Assembly: GCA_030692375.1 (NCBI GenBank)
Contig: JAUYCD010000018.1
Span: forward strand, 1-32,066
Direction of reading: 5' to 3'
From: Candidatus Latescibacter sp.
GTDB taxonomy: Bacteria > Latescibacterota > Latescibacteria > Latescibacterales > Latescibacteraceae
Length of the DNA stretch: 32,066 nucleotides
Below are positions 4,011-27,246 of this stretch, one piece after another. Below the pieces are notes generated by a model, which saw only the letters and a list, made by a program, of their open reading frames with translations, did no database searches and had not been told where the DNA came from. The translations under genes were made by a program, and so were the position numbers. How positions within the stretch are numbered: the first letter of the stretch is position 1; each line of letters starts with the position of its first letter.

Positions 4011-5871
4011 GCGAGGGCGACAAAAGGATAATATTGACATAAGTTATTATAAATAAATAAAATAAATGAATATTTAGCTTGACATGGCGGTTTAGATTTA
4101 TTATACTTAAGGTATTGTTATGAAAGGAGATAAAGCCGCCATGCAACATATTGTAGATCCACGACAAACGAGTTTGATTGACTCTTATACGGGGGTATTT
4201 TCGAAGTTGGCTTACCGCCGCATAGTCAACGGCTGGCAGGGAGTATTCCGGAATGTTATACTCGCTACGATGCCTGTGGACACAATTGCTGGAGAATTCA
4301 GCGAAAGTGAAGGACGGTCGACCAAGGAATTGTATTCGATGGCCGGGTTGGTATTCATCATGCAGTTTCGTAACTGGACGATCGAGCAGGCAGCGGAAGA
4401 ATATATGATTAATTTGGGCGTCCAGTATGCGCTCAATCTGGAGCCGGGCGGGCAAAGTCTTTCTTCGCGAACGCTGGATCGTTATCTGGCGATTTTTCGT
4501 GAGTGTGACATTGCGGAGAAGGTGTTTCACGATGTGACTCAAGCACTGGTTGAAGCACTGGAAAAAGACGTGAGCCGGCAGCGATTGGATTCCACGCATA
4601 TATTCAGCAATATGGCGCAGTTTGGGCGGACACAGTTGATGGGAGTGGTAGTCAAGCGTTTCCTGACTCAAGTGCATCGGCATGATGTCCCTGCTTATGA
4701 AGCCTTGCCTGAAGAATTGCTCGCGCGATATGCCCCGGCAGCCAACCGGTTGTTCGGCGACACGGTGAACGACATCAAATCGCGGAAGCTGATTCGTCAA
4801 CAGGTTGCTGAGGATATGCTGATGTTGATTCAATGGTTTGAGGATACCGATCACGCTGATCGGACGACGTTTAAGCAACTGGTTCGGGTGTTCAACGAAC
4901 AATGCACGGTAGAAGAGAAACGGGTGATAATCAAAGAGAAAGCGGGAGGCCGAGTGCTTCAGAACCCTTCCGACCCCGATGCCACCTATGACGGCCTGAA
5001 AGGGCCGGGATACCAGGTGCAGGTCGCCGAGACCTGTACGGAAGGTGATGTGCAGCTGATCACAGCGGTTATCCCGCAAACGGCGGCCGAACCAGATTGT
5101 GAGGCTGTCCTTCCCGTATGCCGTGACCTTCAGGAAACTGGATTGGTTCCTGAAATAATGCTGTGCGATGCCGCCTATGGCAGCGACGCCAATGTCCAGA
5201 ATTGTAAAGCACAAGAAATGGAATTGATCAGCCCGGTCAACCGGTCCCGACGCAATGATGAGATAATGCATGTAGACGATTTTGACATCGACCCTTTCAC
5301 AGAATGCGTTCACCTTTGTCCGGCAGGTCATGCGCCTCTGGAATCCACTCATGACCTGTCCACGGGGAAGACCCGCACCATCTTTGACGGTGCGTTGTGC
5401 AGAGCCTGTCCAAGCTTTGCAAAATGCCCCACTACCGGAAAGGGTAACCGCCGTACGTTCCATCACACCCCTGCTCAACGGCGTAACGCCGCGCGCCTCC
5501 AGAAGGAACAGACCCCCGCGTTCCGTTCCGTATACAACAAACGAGCCGGTATCGAAGGAACCTTTTCGCGCATCAAATCCTGCCTCGGCCTGCATCGGTT
5601 GCGAGTTCGGGGATCCAAGCCCGTATTCATGGCATTGTTTCTCAAACTTGCTGGGTGGAATATTCTCCAGGCCGCAAAATCTAATACCTTGAGGAGGAAA
5701 ATAGCCGCCAAAATACGGGTATTTTCCACTAATCCGATCCCAAATTGGCTTTCGATGTATGTTTTCAGGTTCCATTGTTATCTTTTTAACCGTCCTGTTC
5801 TCTGTTCGCCTTTAACAGACCTTTTGATGCATTCAAGTTGAATAAAAGTTTTTTACTTTTGTCGCCCTCGT
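4011..5871 (+). mobile_element. IS1182-like insertion sequence, apparently complete
   Basis: The ends are 15-bp inverted repeats, CGAGGGCGACAAAAG at 4012-4026 and its exact complement at 5856-5870. One extra base on each side (G at 4011, T at 5871) separates them from the flanking 9-bp direct repeat CTTAATAAG. The element is 1,861 bp and carries one transposase gene. The perfect inverted repeats, perfect target duplication and open transposase frame all suggest a recent insertion. Confidence 0.85.
4141..5841 (+). CDS. IS1182-family-like DDE transposase
   Basis: 566 residues from ATG 4141, chosen because AAAGGAGA lies 10 bases upstream; an in-frame ATG at 4120 precedes that site. N-terminal DNA-binding part about residues 20-150, then a DDE catalytic core: DSTHIFSNMAQFGR supplies the first Asp, LCDAAYGSDAN the second, and RAGIEGTFSRIK the Glu. 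Between the last two lies a Cys/His cluster (HLCPAGH, LCRACPSFAKCPTTGKG) typical of IS1182-type enzymes, followed by the RTFHHT segment. All three acidic residues are present and the frame is unbroken, so the enzyme may be active. The C-terminal about 35 residues after NPIPNW are not conserved-looking and run nearly to the right inverted repeat. Confidence 0.88.
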   Translation: MQHIVDPRQTSLIDSYTGVFSKLAYRRIVNGWQGVFRNVILATMPVDTIAGEFSESEGRSTKELYSMAGLVFIMQFRNWTIEQAAEEYMINLGVQYALNLEPGGQSLSSRTLDRYLAIFRECDIAEKVFHDVTQALVEALEKDVSRQRLDSTHIFSNMAQFGRTQLMGVVVKRFLTQVHRHDVPAYEALPEELLARYAPAANRLFGDTVNDIKSRKLIRQQVAEDMLMLIQWFEDTDHADRTTFKQLVRVFNEQCTVEEKRVIIKEKAGGRVLQNPSDPDATYDGLKGPGYQVQVAETCTEGDVQLITAVIPQTAAEPDCEAVLPVCRDLQETGLVPEIMLCDAAYGSDANVQNCKAQEMELISPVNRSRRNDEIMHVDDFDIDPFTECVHLCPAGHAPLESTHDLSTGKTRTIFDGALCRACPSFAKCPTTGKGNRRTFHHTPAQRRNAARLQKEQTPAFRSVYNKRAGIEGTFSRIKSCLGLHRLRVRGSKPVFMALFLKLAGWNILQAAKSNTLRRKIAAKIRVFSTNPIPNWLSMYVFRFHCYLFNRPVLCSPLTDLLMHSS

Positions 5872-23058: not shown

Positions 23059-23925
23059 ATGGTACGAAAAATTACGCTGGCAGGACTCTTTTTTACTCTG
23101 TGCCTGCCCTGTTTATTGGCTGCCCAGACGCTGGACGGGAGTCCTTATACTCCCGGGAAAGACCCTGATATCGATCTCTACATGGTGAACTGGAAAGACT
23201 CCGCGCCGAAAAAAACCTACGGCGCCCTGACTGAACAAGCGATTTTCACCAGGGGCGACCCGATGAAACCGCCGGCAAAAGGCGCGGTGCTCAAGTACTG
23301 CAATCGTTTCAGCCATGCCGCATTGGAACCGCAGGCCACCACCGGTCCGGTCACCCTTCAGGGCGAGCAGGAAGTGTACTATATCCTTTCCGGCAAAGGC
23401 GCCATCAAAACAGGCAAGAAGACCGTTGACCTTTATGAAGGCATCTGCATTCTCATGCCCGCCAATCTTACATTCGTCATGACCAGTACCGGTTCCGAAC
23501 CGCTCACCATGTACCTGGTCAACGAGCCGATTCCCCAGGGATTCCGCCCCAATAAGGACATACTTGTCAGGGATGAAAACACCATCCCCATTACTTCCAC
23601 CAACGGCCATTGGTGCCACATCGTCAAAGGACTCTTTTCCGCCGCCGATGGGTTCGGAACCCTGGAGGCGGTGCTTACCGTGTCGCTGGATCCCATGACC
23701 ATCGCCCATCCCCACAGCCATGACACGGGCTGCGAAGAGGCGTGGACTGAAATCTCCGGGACCAGTATTGCTTTCATCGGCAAGCAGATCCGCATGCAGC
23801 CCCCCGGAACCGGGTATATGATCCCACCCAACGGAAACACTCCCCACGCCAACATCAATACTTCTGACAAACCGATCAAATTGTTATACTTCGCTCGCTA
23901 TAAAGATCACGAGGTGAGAAAATAA
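23059..23925 (+). CDS. Exported bicupin protein, paralogue 1
   Basis: 288 residues. Signal peptide ends LLAAQ (about residue 22), then LDGSPYTPGKDPDIDLYM. Two cupin domains: the first (about 75-155; EQEVYYILSGKGAIKTG, GICILMPANLTF) lacks the HxH metal ligands; the second (about 205-280) has the full set, HPHSHDTGCEEAWTEISG for motif 1 and GYMIPPNGNTPHANIN for motif 2, so one metal site per chain is likely. GGAGG lies six bases before the ATG. It is followed 17 bp later by a close paralogue. The substrate is unknown; cupins of this layout include oxygenases and sugar-binding proteins. Confidence 0.85.
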   Translation: MVRKITLAGLFFTLCLPCLLAAQTLDGSPYTPGKDPDIDLYMVNWKDSAPKKTYGALTEQAIFTRGDPMKPPAKGAVLKYCNRFSHAALEPQATTGPVTLQGEQEVYYILSGKGAIKTGKKTVDLYEGICILMPANLTFVMTSTGSEPLTMYLVNEPIPQGFRPNKDILVRDENTIPITSTNGHWCHIVKGLFSAADGFGTLEAVLTVSLDPMTIAHPHSHDTGCEEAWTEISGTSIAFIGKQIRMQPPGTGYMIPPNGNTPHANINTSDKPIKLLYFARYKDHEVRK

Positions 23926-23942
23926 CAACCAAGGAGAAAACC

Positions 23943-24806
23943 ATGTCCGTCAAAGCATATACCCTGAGCTTTCTGATGTTTCTTGCGATTCAAACCGCCG
24001 CGTCCGGCCAAAGCCTGGACGGTTCTCCCTATACGCCCGGCAAGGATGCCGATATCGACATGTTCATGGGATGCTGGACCGAATCCAATCCCCGGGTGAC
24101 CCACGGCACCCTGATCGAGCGGGATATTCTGACAAAAGGGAATGCTCTTACTCCCCCCCGCCGTGGCGCGGTGATGGAGTATGTGAACCGTTTCGCGTAC
24201 GGTACCCTTCCCGCTCACAACACCACCGTTCCCACCGCGCTCAAAGGCCAGCAGGAAGCTTTTTATGTTCTTTCCGGAAAAGGTACGGTAACCGGAGGCG
24301 GAAAAACAGCCGATCTTTTCGACGGCATCTGCTTCTTTGTCCCGGAAGGCCTCGAATTCACCATGACCAATACCGGCGACGAGCCGCTGACCATGTATGT
24401 CATCTCCGACCCGGTGCCGGAAGGTTTCAAACCCGGAAAAGAAATCCGGGTTAAAAACGAGAATCTGTTTCCCCTCGGCACTAAGGACGGCCACTGGTGC
24501 TACCAGGAGCGTGACCTGCTTACGGGCCGTGACGGCCTCGCTACCATCTACGCCATCATCACACTCACCATGGATCCCATGACCATCGGACATCCCCACA
24601 GCCATGGACGCGGCACCGAGGAAATATGGACTACCATCAAGGGGAACAATATAGCATTCCTCGGCAAGCAGATCCGCATGCAGCCGCCGGGAACGGCCTA
24701 CATGATACCGGAGGACGGGAAGACTACCCACTCCAATATCAACCAGTCAAAGACCGAGCAGGTGAAGATGCTCTATATCGCGGTTCGAAAGGATTTGAAA
24801 AAGTGA
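23943..24806 (+). CDS. Exported bicupin protein, paralogue 2
   Basis: 287 residues, the same architecture as the first: signal peptide ending AASGQ, then LDGSPYTPGKDADIDMFM; an N-terminal cupin without metal ligands (GQQEAFYVLSGKGTVTGG); a C-terminal cupin with HPHSHGRGTEEIWTTIKG and AYMIPEDGKTTHSNIN. The Pro before the last His of motif 2 in the other two copies is replaced by Thr. AAGGAG precedes the ATG. The 17-bp gap from paralogue 1 suggests a shared transcript. It ends KDLKK without the KDHEVRK-like tail of its neighbours. Confidence 0.85.
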   Translation: MSVKAYTLSFLMFLAIQTAASGQSLDGSPYTPGKDADIDMFMGCWTESNPRVTHGTLIERDILTKGNALTPPRRGAVMEYVNRFAYGTLPAHNTTVPTALKGQQEAFYVLSGKGTVTGGGKTADLFDGICFFVPEGLEFTMTNTGDEPLTMYVISDPVPEGFKPGKEIRVKNENLFPLGTKDGHWCYQERDLLTGRDGLATIYAIITLTMDPMTIGHPHSHGRGTEEIWTTIKGNNIAFLGKQIRMQPPGTAYMIPEDGKTTHSNINQSKTEQVKMLYIAVRKDLKK

Positions 24807-24819
24807 TAGTGCATCACAT

Positions 24820-24896
24820 GACACGTGTCACCTTTTAAAAATAGATGCCGAAACAAGTTCGGCATGACACGTGTCATCCTGAACTCGTTTCAGGAT
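24820..24896. repeat. Palindromic cluster, including triple palindrome copy B
   Basis: 24845-24896 is the exact reverse complement of 13247-13298: hairpin ATGCCGAA/TTCGGCAT, GACACGTGTC (24866-24875), hairpin ATCCTGAA/TTCAGGAT. An additional GACACGTGTC sits at 24820-24829. The cluster separates the second and third bicupin genes and could attenuate or stabilise their transcript. Confidence 0.82.
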
Positions 24897-24918
24897 ATAT
24901 TCCGAATAGGAGGACTCC

Positions 24919-25794
24919 ATGTCACGTCCGATTTCCATACTCTGTCTTCTTCTTCTGACAGGGTACACCGTTCCTGCATTCGCGCAGAATCAGCTAGATC
25001 CGGCGCCGTACGATCCGGCCAAAGAACCGAACCCGGACATGTACATCTCAAGTTATAAAGATTCCATGCCTGTGCATACGCACGGCGCCCTGATCGAACG
25101 GGCGGTGCTCACCCGCTGCGATGGCGATCCCATGAATCCGCCGACCAAAGGCGCGGTGCTCAAGTATGTGAACCGCTTCTCCTACGCCACCCTCGATGCG
25201 TCCGGCTCCACTTCGCCGACCACACTGAAAAACGAGCAGGAGCTTTTCCTTATCCTTTCCGGCAAAGGCAGGGTAACCGCCGGAAAGAAAACGGTGGAAC
25301 TCTATCCGGGGATGTTTTTCATGGTTCCCTGCAATCTCAGCTTCACCATAACCAACACCGGCGATGAAGAGATGACCATGTACCTGGTAGCCGAGCCGAC
25401 TCCGCCCGGATTCCGTCCCAATACGGACCTCTTCGTGCGTGACGAGAATGTAACGCCCTGGACTACGTCCAACGCCCACTGGGTCAATGCCTACAAGGAT
25501 CTGATCATGCCCGATGACGGCCTGGCGACGCTCCAGATGGTGCTGACTGTCGAGTTGTACCCCATGACTTTTGCCCAGCCGCACAGCCACATTCCAGGAT
25601 GCGAGGAAGTGTGGGTGACCATGAGCGGCGAGGTATACTTCCTTCTCGGAAAGCAGATTCGCAGGCTGCCGGTCGGCTCGGCCTATGAAATTCCGCCGAA
25701 TGATAAAGTCCCGCACGCCAACTTCAATGTGTCGGAAAAACCGATCAAGTTTTTCTATTTCGCACGTTTCAACGACCATGAACCGAGGAAATAA
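24919..25794 (+). CDS. Exported bicupin protein, paralogue 3
   Basis: 291 residues. Signal peptide ends PAFAQ, then LDPAPYDPAKEPNPDMYI. N-terminal cupin without ligands (NEQELFLILSGKGRVTAG); C-terminal cupin with QPHSHIPGCEEVWVTMSG and AYEIPPNDKVPHANFN, so the metal site is kept. A two-residue insertion (RCDGDPMN versus RGDPMK) distinguishes it from paralogue 1. GGAGG is six bases before ATG. It is separated from paralogue 2 by the palindrome cluster, so it could be independently expressed. Confidence 0.85.
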   Translation: MSRPISILCLLLLTGYTVPAFAQNQLDPAPYDPAKEPNPDMYISSYKDSMPVHTHGALIERAVLTRCDGDPMNPPTKGAVLKYVNRFSYATLDASGSTSPTTLKNEQELFLILSGKGRVTAGKKTVELYPGMFFMVPCNLSFTITNTGDEEMTMYLVAEPTPPGFRPNTDLFVRDENVTPWTTSNAHWVNAYKDLIMPDDGLATLQMVLTVELYPMTFAQPHSHIPGCEEVWVTMSGEVYFLLGKQIRRLPVGSAYEIPPNDKVPHANFNVSEKPIKFFYFARFNDHEPRK

Positions 25795-25930: not shown

Positions 25931-26002
25931 ATGGATAACATACTCTATTACGGCGACAACCTGGATGTTCTGAAAACGAACAATATGTCAAGCATCGGAT
26001 GA
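25931..26002 (+). pseudogene. N-terminal stub of a site-specific DNA methyltransferase
   Basis: The frame MDNILYYGDNLDVLKTNN followed by MSSIG and a stop. NILYYGDNLDVLK is the characteristic opening (SAM-binding strand) of DNA adenine/cytosine-N4 methyltransferases of restriction-modification systems; the DPPFNS catalytic motif that should follow is gone. Only about the first 15-18 codons remain, so this is debris from a lost restriction-modification gene. Confidence 0.6.
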
Positions 26003-26053
26003 TATCCAATTCCCTTATATTTCCCTTATTTGGGGTGACAGTTAGCTTTTTTG

Positions 26054-26059
26054 TATAAT
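26054..26059 (+). promoter_or_regulatory. Possible -10 box
   Basis: A perfect TATAAT lies 108 bp upstream of the cassette gene's start. The nearest -35-like hexamer (GTGACA, 26035-26040) is only 13 bases away, so this is at best a weak candidate. Confidence 0.2.
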
Positions 26060-26135
26060 AGTTTATTATTTTTCTTCGCGATTCAATAGAAACAATTTTA
26101 TAATGGGTGTTATGAAGGGGCTACAGAATTATTTG

Positions 26136-26992
26136 TTAGACCTCGGAGGCTAAAGGAGACTCCGCTATGGCAAAAATCGCGGAAAAGATTACGAACCTCG
26201 CTCTATAACAACTCAAAAAGCATCCGGATGGCGTCCGTTATGGGGACCTCGTACGCCTCATTGAGACGGCTGATGCCTCATTGATGAACAACACCATTCA
26301 CGGTACCGTCTGGGACCTGGCAACTCGTCTGCCCGAAAAAGTCTACAAACCCTCGCGCGGCCTTTTCCGGCTCGTCGAGTTCCTCGATAAGGACACGGAT
26401 CAGCTCAAGGTCGATCTTGTTCCAAAGCCCCCGCAGAAAACGAAGGAAGAAGACTTCTACTCTCCTTTTGCAGATTGGCTCGTCAACGACTTTGAAGAGT
26501 GCACCAAGGCGATTCCCCTTGGCGGCAACAAGTTTAAGGATAAATGGGGTACGCCGGACGTGATCGGCAAGCGGGAGTCAAAGAAAAGTGACATTTTGCA
26601 AGCGCCAACGGAGATCGTCTCCGCCGAAATCAAGACCGACGTCTCACAACTCGTTACCGCGTTCGGGCAGGCCTGCGCATACTGCCTCTTCAGCCATAAA
26701 TCATATCTTGTGGTGCCAGAGGACTCCCCTCAAGGTGAGGTTGCGCGGCTCGACTCGCTCTGTCAGGTGTTCGGCGTCGGACTAATCCTCTTTGACGTTG
26801 CATCGCCCAATGATCCGAAGTTCAACGTCAAGGTTCGCGCACGTAAGCAGGAGCCAGACATGTTCTACGCCAACAAGTACATGCGGCTCATCGAGACTGA
26901 AATGTTTTCTTGAACGGAGGTCTAACCCGCCGTCGTAGCGGAATCTCGGGAGCGGCGCTTTGCGCCGTCCCTCGATCCGTTGAATGGTAACG
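26136..26992 (+). mobile_element. Candidate integron gene cassette
   Basis: The unit begins TTAGAC (26136-26141, preceded by G) and ends with a structured site whose inner box is GTCTAAC (26920-26926) and outer box GTTAGGC (26992-26998). If cut at G/TT as integron integrases do, the circular cassette would join G to TTAGAC, giving GTTAGAC, the exact complement of GTCTAAC. The single gene starts 25 bases after the left boundary and stops 6 bases before the inner box, the tight packing expected of a cassette. No integrase gene lies in the window. Confidence 0.6.
26167..26913 (+). pseudogene. HTH plus PD-(D/E)XK nuclease-like protein with in-frame stop
   Basis: ATG 26167 sits 9 bases behind AAAGGAG and opens MAKIAEKITNLAL, then TAA (26206-26208), then QLKKHPDGVRYGDLVRLIE continuing in frame into the remaining 210 codons. 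The N-terminal region including NTIHGTVWDLATRLPEKVYKPSRGLFRL looks like a winged-helix/HARE-HTH domain. The C-terminal part (about residues 95-200 counted from 26167) has a probable PD-(D/E)XK core: WGTPDVIG and IVSAEIKTD (D...ExK), followed by FGQACAYCLFSHKSYLVVP. Such proteins resemble restriction or nuclease-like accessory proteins. Either the gene is inactivated by the stop, or a shortened protein starts at TTG 26281/ATG 26284. Confidence 0.62.
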
Positions 26993-26998
26993 TTAGGC
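26920..26998 (+). other. Candidate attC recombination site
   Basis: 79 bp. Outer boxes GTCTAAC and GTTAGGC; symmetric unpaired 9-base spacers (26927-26935, 26983-26991); then a stem starting at 26936/26982 that includes GGAATC...GATCC, GGGA...TCCC and CGGCGC/GCGCCG with a TTT loop (26959-26961). Two bases on one side (A26942 and G26952) are unpaired bulges, matching the extrahelical bases that define attC polarity. The boxes fit RYYYAAC and GTTRRRY. Confidence 0.62.
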
Positions 26999-27051: not shown

Positions 27052-27246
27052 TCAGACCATATTCTCTCTCAAAAACACCTCAATATCTCTCGTCGCTATT
27101 ATTCCACCGTCTCTTGCTCCTGCTATAAATTCAACTTTGAATGCCTGATAGAGCTGCCTCGATAGTATCGGATTTCCTGTATAATCATAGAGTATTGCAA
27201 ATGCCGCCTGAGAGCACTTATGTATTTTTTGTTTTTTTTCCCGTCT
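27052..27246 (-). pseudogene. Orphan C-terminal gene fragment
   Basis: On the minus strand, after a stop at 27249-27247, a 64-codon frame reads RREKKQKIHKCSQAAFAILYD, YTGNPILSRQLYQAFKVEFI and AGARDGGIIATRDIEVFLREN, ending MV-stop. The composition and amphipathic pattern are protein-like, unlike the surrounding AT-rich DNA, but there is no ATG or GTG start. It is probably the end of a gene whose front was lost. The family was not recognised. Confidence 0.4.

What the first reader, a model, noticed from the sequence alone, without database searches (positions are those of the whole stretch)
26136..26998. Lone integron cassette with an attC-like site and no integrase nearby
The right boundary folds into R-box, symmetric spacer, stem with two bulged bases and TTT loop, which is the attC architecture. 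The left boundary G/TTAGAC completes a perfect partner (GTTAGAC) for GTCTAAC on circularisation, a prediction that did not have to hold by chance. The gene packs tightly between them. An isolated cassette in a non-integron neighbourhood would be either a secondary-site insertion or a CALIN-type remnant in a candidate phylum.
Basis: partly seen in the sequence, partly recalled or inferred. Interest (0 to 1): 0.65.

Follow-up and report, generated by a model that had tools for sequence, protein, structure and literature searches.

The report
Integron cassette at orphan attI-like site
The stretch is a genuine mobile gene cassette of the integron type, and it is one of about twenty scattered through a bacterial genome that has lost the integron's recombinase gene, most of them sitting behind the same kind of leftover docking site instead of at one central array.

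Summary
Window 26920-26998 is the only attC-like site in 32 kb by a covariance model built from 16 independent attC sites (25.4 bits, E 0.0013), and the left boundary GTTAGAC (26135-26141) is the exact partner of R'' GTCTAAC. The cassette gene is a predicted PD-(D/E)XK nuclease with a premature TAA at codon 14.

The interpretation changes. The cassette is not isolated and not at a random secondary site. The genome (3.9 Mb, 97% complete) carries at least 23 attC sites on 19 contigs, and no intact intI. The DNA left of the window cassette (about 26038-26135) is a repeated attI-like site: 20 copies of three classes share a roughly 30-nt core that ends exactly at the cassette crossover G|TT. Nine of 16 cassettes behind such sites have the exact 7-base partner of their own attC (1.1 expected).

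One copy (contig C180) lies 3' of a degraded intI C-terminus, and a core-like site lies 3' of an intact intI in another genome of the phylum. The same sites occur in sister genera without IntI.

Best reading: a decayed, multi-locus integron system, with orphan attI-like sites each keeping one to three cassettes (TA, AbiJ, TIR, SIR2 genes). How the sites multiplied is unresolved.

The parts
25984..26037 (+). 5' extension of the repeated class A element; shared with contig C99 of the same genome and with sister genome G002
   Evidence: BLAST: window 25984-26137 against C99, 78% identity over 154 bases; G002:C108 83% over positions 1-67
26038..26135 (+). attI-like site, class A; core GTTATGAAGGGGCTACAGAATTATTTG| at 26109-26135 ends at the cassette crossover
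   Evidence: 10 further class A copies in own genome and 9 of classes B and C with a shared core; core-like site next to intact intI in G027 and class B next to an intI remnant on C180
26054..26059 (+). TATAAT, possible -10 box of a promoter reading into the cassette (weak)
   Evidence: sequence; consensus scan gives a 9/12 match overlapping here, not above chance; the hexamer is not conserved in all class A copies
26135..26141 (+). left crossover G|TTAGAC, exact partner of R''
   Evidence: 7/7 complement of GTCTAAC
26136..26992 (+). integron gene cassette (TT at 26136 to G at 26992)
   Evidence: attI-like site on the left, attC on the right, one gene between
26152..26158 (+). AAAGGAG, likely ribosome-binding site
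   Evidence: sequence, 8 bases before ATG 26167
26167..26913 (+). cassette gene, 248 codons, predicted winged-helix plus PD-(D/E)XK nuclease, with a nonsense codon
   Evidence: homologues in many phyla align from the same ATG; motif P-D...E-x-K invariant in 22 sequences; AlphaFold model pLDDT 85
26206..26208 (+). in-frame TAA at codon 14 (closest homologue L044 has glutamate in ALEQLKKH)
26920..26998 (+). attC site (R'' 26920-26926, R' 26992-26998)
   Evidence: covariance model R1 25.4 bits, E 0.0013; R2 39.7 bits, but R2 was trained partly on this site

Best explanation
Window 26136-26992 is an integron gene cassette held at an orphan attI-like site (about 26038-26135), one of about twenty such docking sites dispersed in a genome whose integron integrase gene has decayed. 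Inferred working: when an IntI was present, or is supplied in trans, the folded bottom strand of a circular cassette's attC recombined with the attI-like site at G|TT, giving attI-cassette-attC. The integrase genes next to these sites were later lost (a C-terminal stub remains on C180, and the last codons probably on C212), leaving each site with one to three cassettes, many of them toxin-antitoxin or anti-phage-like genes. The window cassette encodes a predicted PD-(D/E)XK nuclease that now carries a nonsense codon. Shown by sequence: the attC, the matching left boundary, the repeated attI-like core ending at the crossover, the other scattered cassettes, the intI remnant, and no intact intI detected. 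Inferred: that class A is a true attI, that IntI made the insertion, and that the sites share one origin.
For: attC: independent model, only hit in the window. Own genome: 10 attC at E<0.04 with the independent model R1 and 23 at E<=0.1 on 19 contigs with R2, while 10 of 19 genomes searched alike, some complete and up to 6.5 Mb, gave none. attI-like sites: 20 copies in three classes with a shared core. In 13 of 17 cases the site's box matches the next attC's R'' at 6 or 7 of 7 bases; exact matches 9 of 16 against 1.1 in shuffled pairings, never reached in 200,000. intI link: C180 has [30 protein letters not shown] (93% over 30 aa to an intact IntI), then a class B site, then a cassette with an exactly matching attC. 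The class B copy on C212 aligns with C180 across the end of intI; its bases CGCAGCCCGGTCGGCGGACTTTGA read RSPVGGL* against RSPVDGL*. In G027 a core-like site lies about 170 bp 3' of an intact intI. Sites also occur in sister genera G001 and G002.
Against: Class A, the class in the window, has not been seen next to any intI; its attI identity rests on the shared core. The cores of classes A, B and C are alike but not closely so outside GTTAT...G|TT. Four class A copies and one class B copy have no detectable attC downstream. The genome is a fragmented MAG (273 contigs, 3.4% contamination), so an intI on a missing contig cannot be excluded. No recombination was tested.
Confidence: 0.72

Rival explanations
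1. Class A is not an attI but an unrelated repeated intergenic element that happens to contain a good non-canonical insertion site (attG-like), so cassettes landed repeatedly in copies of one repeat.
For: Class A copies are 75-88% alike, AT-rich, restricted to one family, and not seen beside an intI.
Against: Classes B and C, with different upstream sequence, share the core and the crossover position, and B and a C-like site sit 3' of an intI remnant and an intact intI respectively.
Confidence: 0.15
2. The loci are fragments of one or more former large cassette arrays broken up by rearrangement (ordinary CALIN decay).
For: Small clusters remain (C264, C171, C176, C140); several attC sites lie near contig ends; several are followed by cassette-like genes.
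Against: Breaking one array does not make 20 diverged copies of the sequence that precedes the first cassette; most loci are single even with full scoring of about 5 kb on each side.
Confidence: 0.08
3. Secondary-site (attG) insertion of a lone cassette at an arbitrary chromosomal place.
For: Such insertions are described experimentally (Loot et al. 2024, cited in PMC12444791 and PMC12901181).
Against: The left flank is a repeated attI-like site, not arbitrary DNA.
Confidence: 0.04
4. The attC is a chance hairpin.
For: Folding energy is only modestly unusual; the 25-bit score is near the lower end for this genome.
Against: Covariance hit, exact left partner, attI-like flank, and a cassette homologue with its own attC.
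Confidence: 0.01

Closest known systems
Chromosomal integrons with intI transcribed towards attI (Treponema; PMC3607928) and archaeal integrons with attI directly downstream of intI (PMC9668308)
   Same: Order intI 3' end, attI, cassettes (own C180 remnant and G027); canonical G|TT insertion point; integrase loss with cassettes left behind, as in T. phagedenis.
   Different: Those papers describe one attI per integron; here about 20 attI-like sites of three classes are dispersed, nearly all without any intI.
SALIN / CALIN (single attC site, or cluster of attC sites, lacking an integron integrase; IntegronFinder 2, PMC9024848; PMC12690207)
   Same: attC-bearing cassettes without intI; the window locus has a single attC.
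   Different: SALIN and CALIN say nothing about a left-hand platform; here the cassettes follow a recurring attI-like site.
attG insertions (Loot et al. 2024, read only through citing papers PMC12444791, PMC12901181, PMC11023631)
   Same: Cassettes outside an integron, dispersed over a genome.
   Different: attG sites are described as broad and weakly specific; these left flanks are a conserved repeated site linked to intI in two cases.
Delta-attI gene cassettes of class 1 integrons (PMC12901181)
   Same: A cassette-like unit may end in an attI-type site instead of an attC (C197: two class C sites 437 bp apart around a DUF433-like gene; C140: a class A site 175 bp after an attC).
   Different: Not class 1, no resistance genes, seen here only by sequence.

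Membership tests
Integron gene cassette | attC site at the 3' end of a gene | tested here: met
   R1 25.4 bits, E 0.0013, only hit in 32 kb
Integron gene cassette | left boundary complementary to R'' of its own attC | tested here: met
   GTTAGAC against GTCTAAC, 7/7
Integron gene cassette | homologues of the gene also found as cassettes | tested here: met
   L044 and L032 followed by attC-like sites, L035 preceded by one; most other homologues were not in cassettes
Integron gene cassette | excision or integration by an IntI | not testable with these tools
   needs a recombination assay
Complete integron | intact intI in the genome | tested here: not met
   Only XerC/D-type genes and a 30-aa IntI stub on C180; other genomes of the phylum exceed the IntI cut-off in the same search
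attI site | located beside intI | tested here: inconclusive
   Met for class B (C180 remnant) and a core-like site in G027; not seen for class A, the class in the window
attI site | non-palindromic conserved site whose 3' edge is the cassette crossover G|TT | tested here: met
   20 copies; 13 of 17 boxes match the next attC at 6 or 7 of 7 bases
SALIN (single attC lacking integrase) | one attC and no intI nearby | tested here: met
   No other attC or intI in the window, filters off
attG insertion | target is a non-attI chromosomal sequence | tested here: not met
   Left flank is a repeated attI-like site
PD-(D/E)XK nuclease | conserved PD...ExK motif on the expected fold | tested here: inconclusive
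   P116-D117...E140-x-K142 invariant in 22 sequences; structural matches to PD-(D/E)XK-type proteins (MUS81, MspJI, YaeQ) are all weaker than E 0.001; no Pfam hit

The most novel reading that the evidence does not exclude
A polycentric integron: one integrase, now lost or supplied in trans, served many attI platforms dispersed over the chromosome, each expressing one or a few cassettes, instead of one attI feeding one array; attI sites may themselves have spread as cassette-borne sites.
Probability: 0.25. Interest if true: 0.8.

Novelty: new variant of a known kind. Interest (0 to 1): 0.62.

Why it matters
Integrons are normally pictured as one attI beside one intI feeding one array. A family of bacteria with about twenty dispersed attI-like sites, each behind a different cassette and without an integrase, would show either repeated integron acquisition and decay or a genome-wide capture design in which any cassette can be first in line for expression. 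It also supplies natural sequence families for defining attI requirements, which are poorly known outside class 1 and Vibrio, and it gives context to single attC sites that annotation software ignores by default.

Tried and rejected
Rfam has no match in the window. BLAST of the attC against the own genome finds no second similar attC, because attC sites are conserved in structure and not sequence; a covariance model was needed. The first scanner settings missed known attC sites and gave GC-rich false positives in other loci, so it was dropped for counting. IntI genes of the phylum (L062-L069) had no attC arrays usable for training. A search of the phylum of G094 was uninformative, as it holds one genome. 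The idea that the class A 5' end (NMSSIG* / GGMSSIG*) is an intI C-terminal stub was not supported: upstream sequence in C99 and G002 is non-coding. Synteny of the window's flanking gene in sister genomes did not give an empty site, because the gene has many paralogues. Structure search gave no significant match. PADLOC and Pfam do not know the cassette protein.

Full report
Observation. The window sequence contains GTCTAAC at 26920, GTTAGGC at 26992 and GTTAGAC at 26135, as described. To test the attC claim independently I fetched class 1 integrons of known cassette content from plasmids (dfrA12, catB3, aadA2, aac(6')-Ib, cmlA1 and others) and one cyanobacterial plasmid integron. I aligned 16 attC sites, imposed the R''/R' and L''/L' pairs and built a calibrated covariance model, R1. 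In the 32-kb window it has one match, 26920-26998, 25.4 bits, E 0.0013. Folding alone is only mildly supportive.

The gene. The frame starts at ATG 26167 after AAAGGAG and stops at a TAA at 26206; the rest is open to 26913. Homologues occur as intact proteins in Planctomycetota, Verrucomicrobia, Acidobacteria, Nitrospirae, proteobacteria, Elusimicrobia, Woesearchaeota and others, and only once among 72,556 plasmids. They align from the same start codon. Twenty-two sequences share invariant P-D...E-x-K, the signature of PD-(D/E)XK nucleases. The AlphaFold model is confident (pLDDT 85), but PDB matches are weak, so the nuclease label is a motif-based prediction. The closest homologue (83%, L044) is followed at once by an attC-like site; L032 is followed and L035 preceded by one.

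The rest of the genome. The own genome has no intact IntI: the hits to the integron-integrase family are XerC/D-type genes and fragments, while 7 of 64 genomes of the phylum have an IntI above the curated cut-off. R1 nevertheless finds ten other attC sites at E<0.04. All look classical. A second model from 13 of these sites (R2) finds 20 at E<0.003 and 23 at E<=0.1 on 19 contigs. R2 includes the window site, so it is not independent for the window. Under the same search ten of nineteen genomes of the phylum, including complete ones of about 6 Mb, give none, while the sister genera give 10 (G001), 5 (G002) and 1 (G003). Exhaustive scoring around the sites shows most are single within their locus, with small clusters on C264, C171, C176 and C140.

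Left boundaries. For 9 of 26 attC sites an exact 7-base partner of R'' lies within 1.2 kb upstream, with 1 exact match within 2 kb downstream. Laying the left flanks side by side gave the main result: they are not arbitrary. Class A precedes the cassettes of the window, C187, C99, C171, C229, C264b and C140, with further copies on C258 (two), C155 and C96. Class B is on C212, C244, C264a, C137 and C180. Class C is on C122, C199 and C197 (two). The classes differ upstream but share a core of about 30 nt, GTTAT...G|TT, ending at the crossover. Pairing each site with the next attC downstream, the box matches R'' at 6 or 7 of 7 bases in 13 of 17 cases. Leaving out the first of the two C197 sites, which point at the same attC, 9 of 16 are exact, against a mean of 1.1 when partners are shuffled, never reached in 200,000 shuffles.

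Link to integrases. A weight matrix of the core finds one convincing site next to an intact integrase: G027, about 170 bp 3' of intI, score 23.7 against at most 11.8 in shuffled 32-kb sequences. In the own genome the short IntI hit on C180 is [30 protein letters not shown], 93% identical over 30 residues to the IntI of G039. It is followed by a class B site and a cassette whose attC is an exact partner. The class B copy on C212 aligns with C180 across the end of intI, where CGCAGCCCGGTCGGCGGACTTTGA can be read as RSPVGGL*; this last point is my reading of the alignment. The order intI 3' end, attI, cassettes is known from Treponema (PMC3607928) and Archaea (PMC9668308). The dispersed sites are therefore best read as attI platforms whose integrase genes are gone. 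For class A, the class in the window, this rests on the shared core only; I found no class A copy beside an intI, and a possible intI stub at its 5' end was not borne out. Class A and C sites also occur in sister genera without IntI.

Cargo. Cassette genes include PemK/MazF-like, HicA, HicB-like, AbiJ, TIR, SIR2-like and ORC/CDC6-like ATPase proteins, the toxin-antitoxin and defence-like content usual for chromosomal integrons (from my own knowledge).

Origin of the dispersal. Copies of class A differ by 12-25%, so they were not copied recently. Possible routes are repeated acquisition of related integrons followed by intI loss, or spread of attI-ended units (C197 has two class C sites 437 bp apart; C140 has a class A site 175 bp after an attC). 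The evidence does not decide between them.

Limits. The genome is a MAG in 273 contigs; several attC sites lie near contig ends; IntegronFinder's own model could not be run; the key attG paper was read only through papers that cite it; no recombination was tested. The second protein sent had its first letters mistyped and is ignored.

Noticed in passing
window 25931-25987: Apparent N-terminal remnant of a DNA methyltransferase gene (MDNILYYGDNLDVL, family recalled from memory) that ends where the class A element begins.
   Followed up: partly
window 27055-27204, minus strand: Remnant of a DUF6166 gene right after the cassette (Pfam E 3.6e-6 for the C-terminal half).
   Followed up: partly
window 4120-5841: Transposase with DDE_Tnp_1_6 domain, far from the cassette.
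   Followed up: no
window 23059-25794: Three consecutive paralogous genes, apparently cupin-like, upstream of the cassette.
   Followed up: no
L119 (own contig C197), reverse complement 1938-2375: Cassette-like unit with a DUF433-like gene and a truncated second gene that ends in a class C attI-like site instead of an attC.
   Followed up: partly
L147 (own contig C258), L148 (C155), L149 (C96): Class A attI-like sites with no detectable attC downstream: empty sites or cassettes with decayed attC.
   Followed up: partly
L032 339-1031: The homologue in a Thermoguttaceae contig also carries one in-frame stop codon, next to an attC-like site.
   Followed up: no
   Followed up: no
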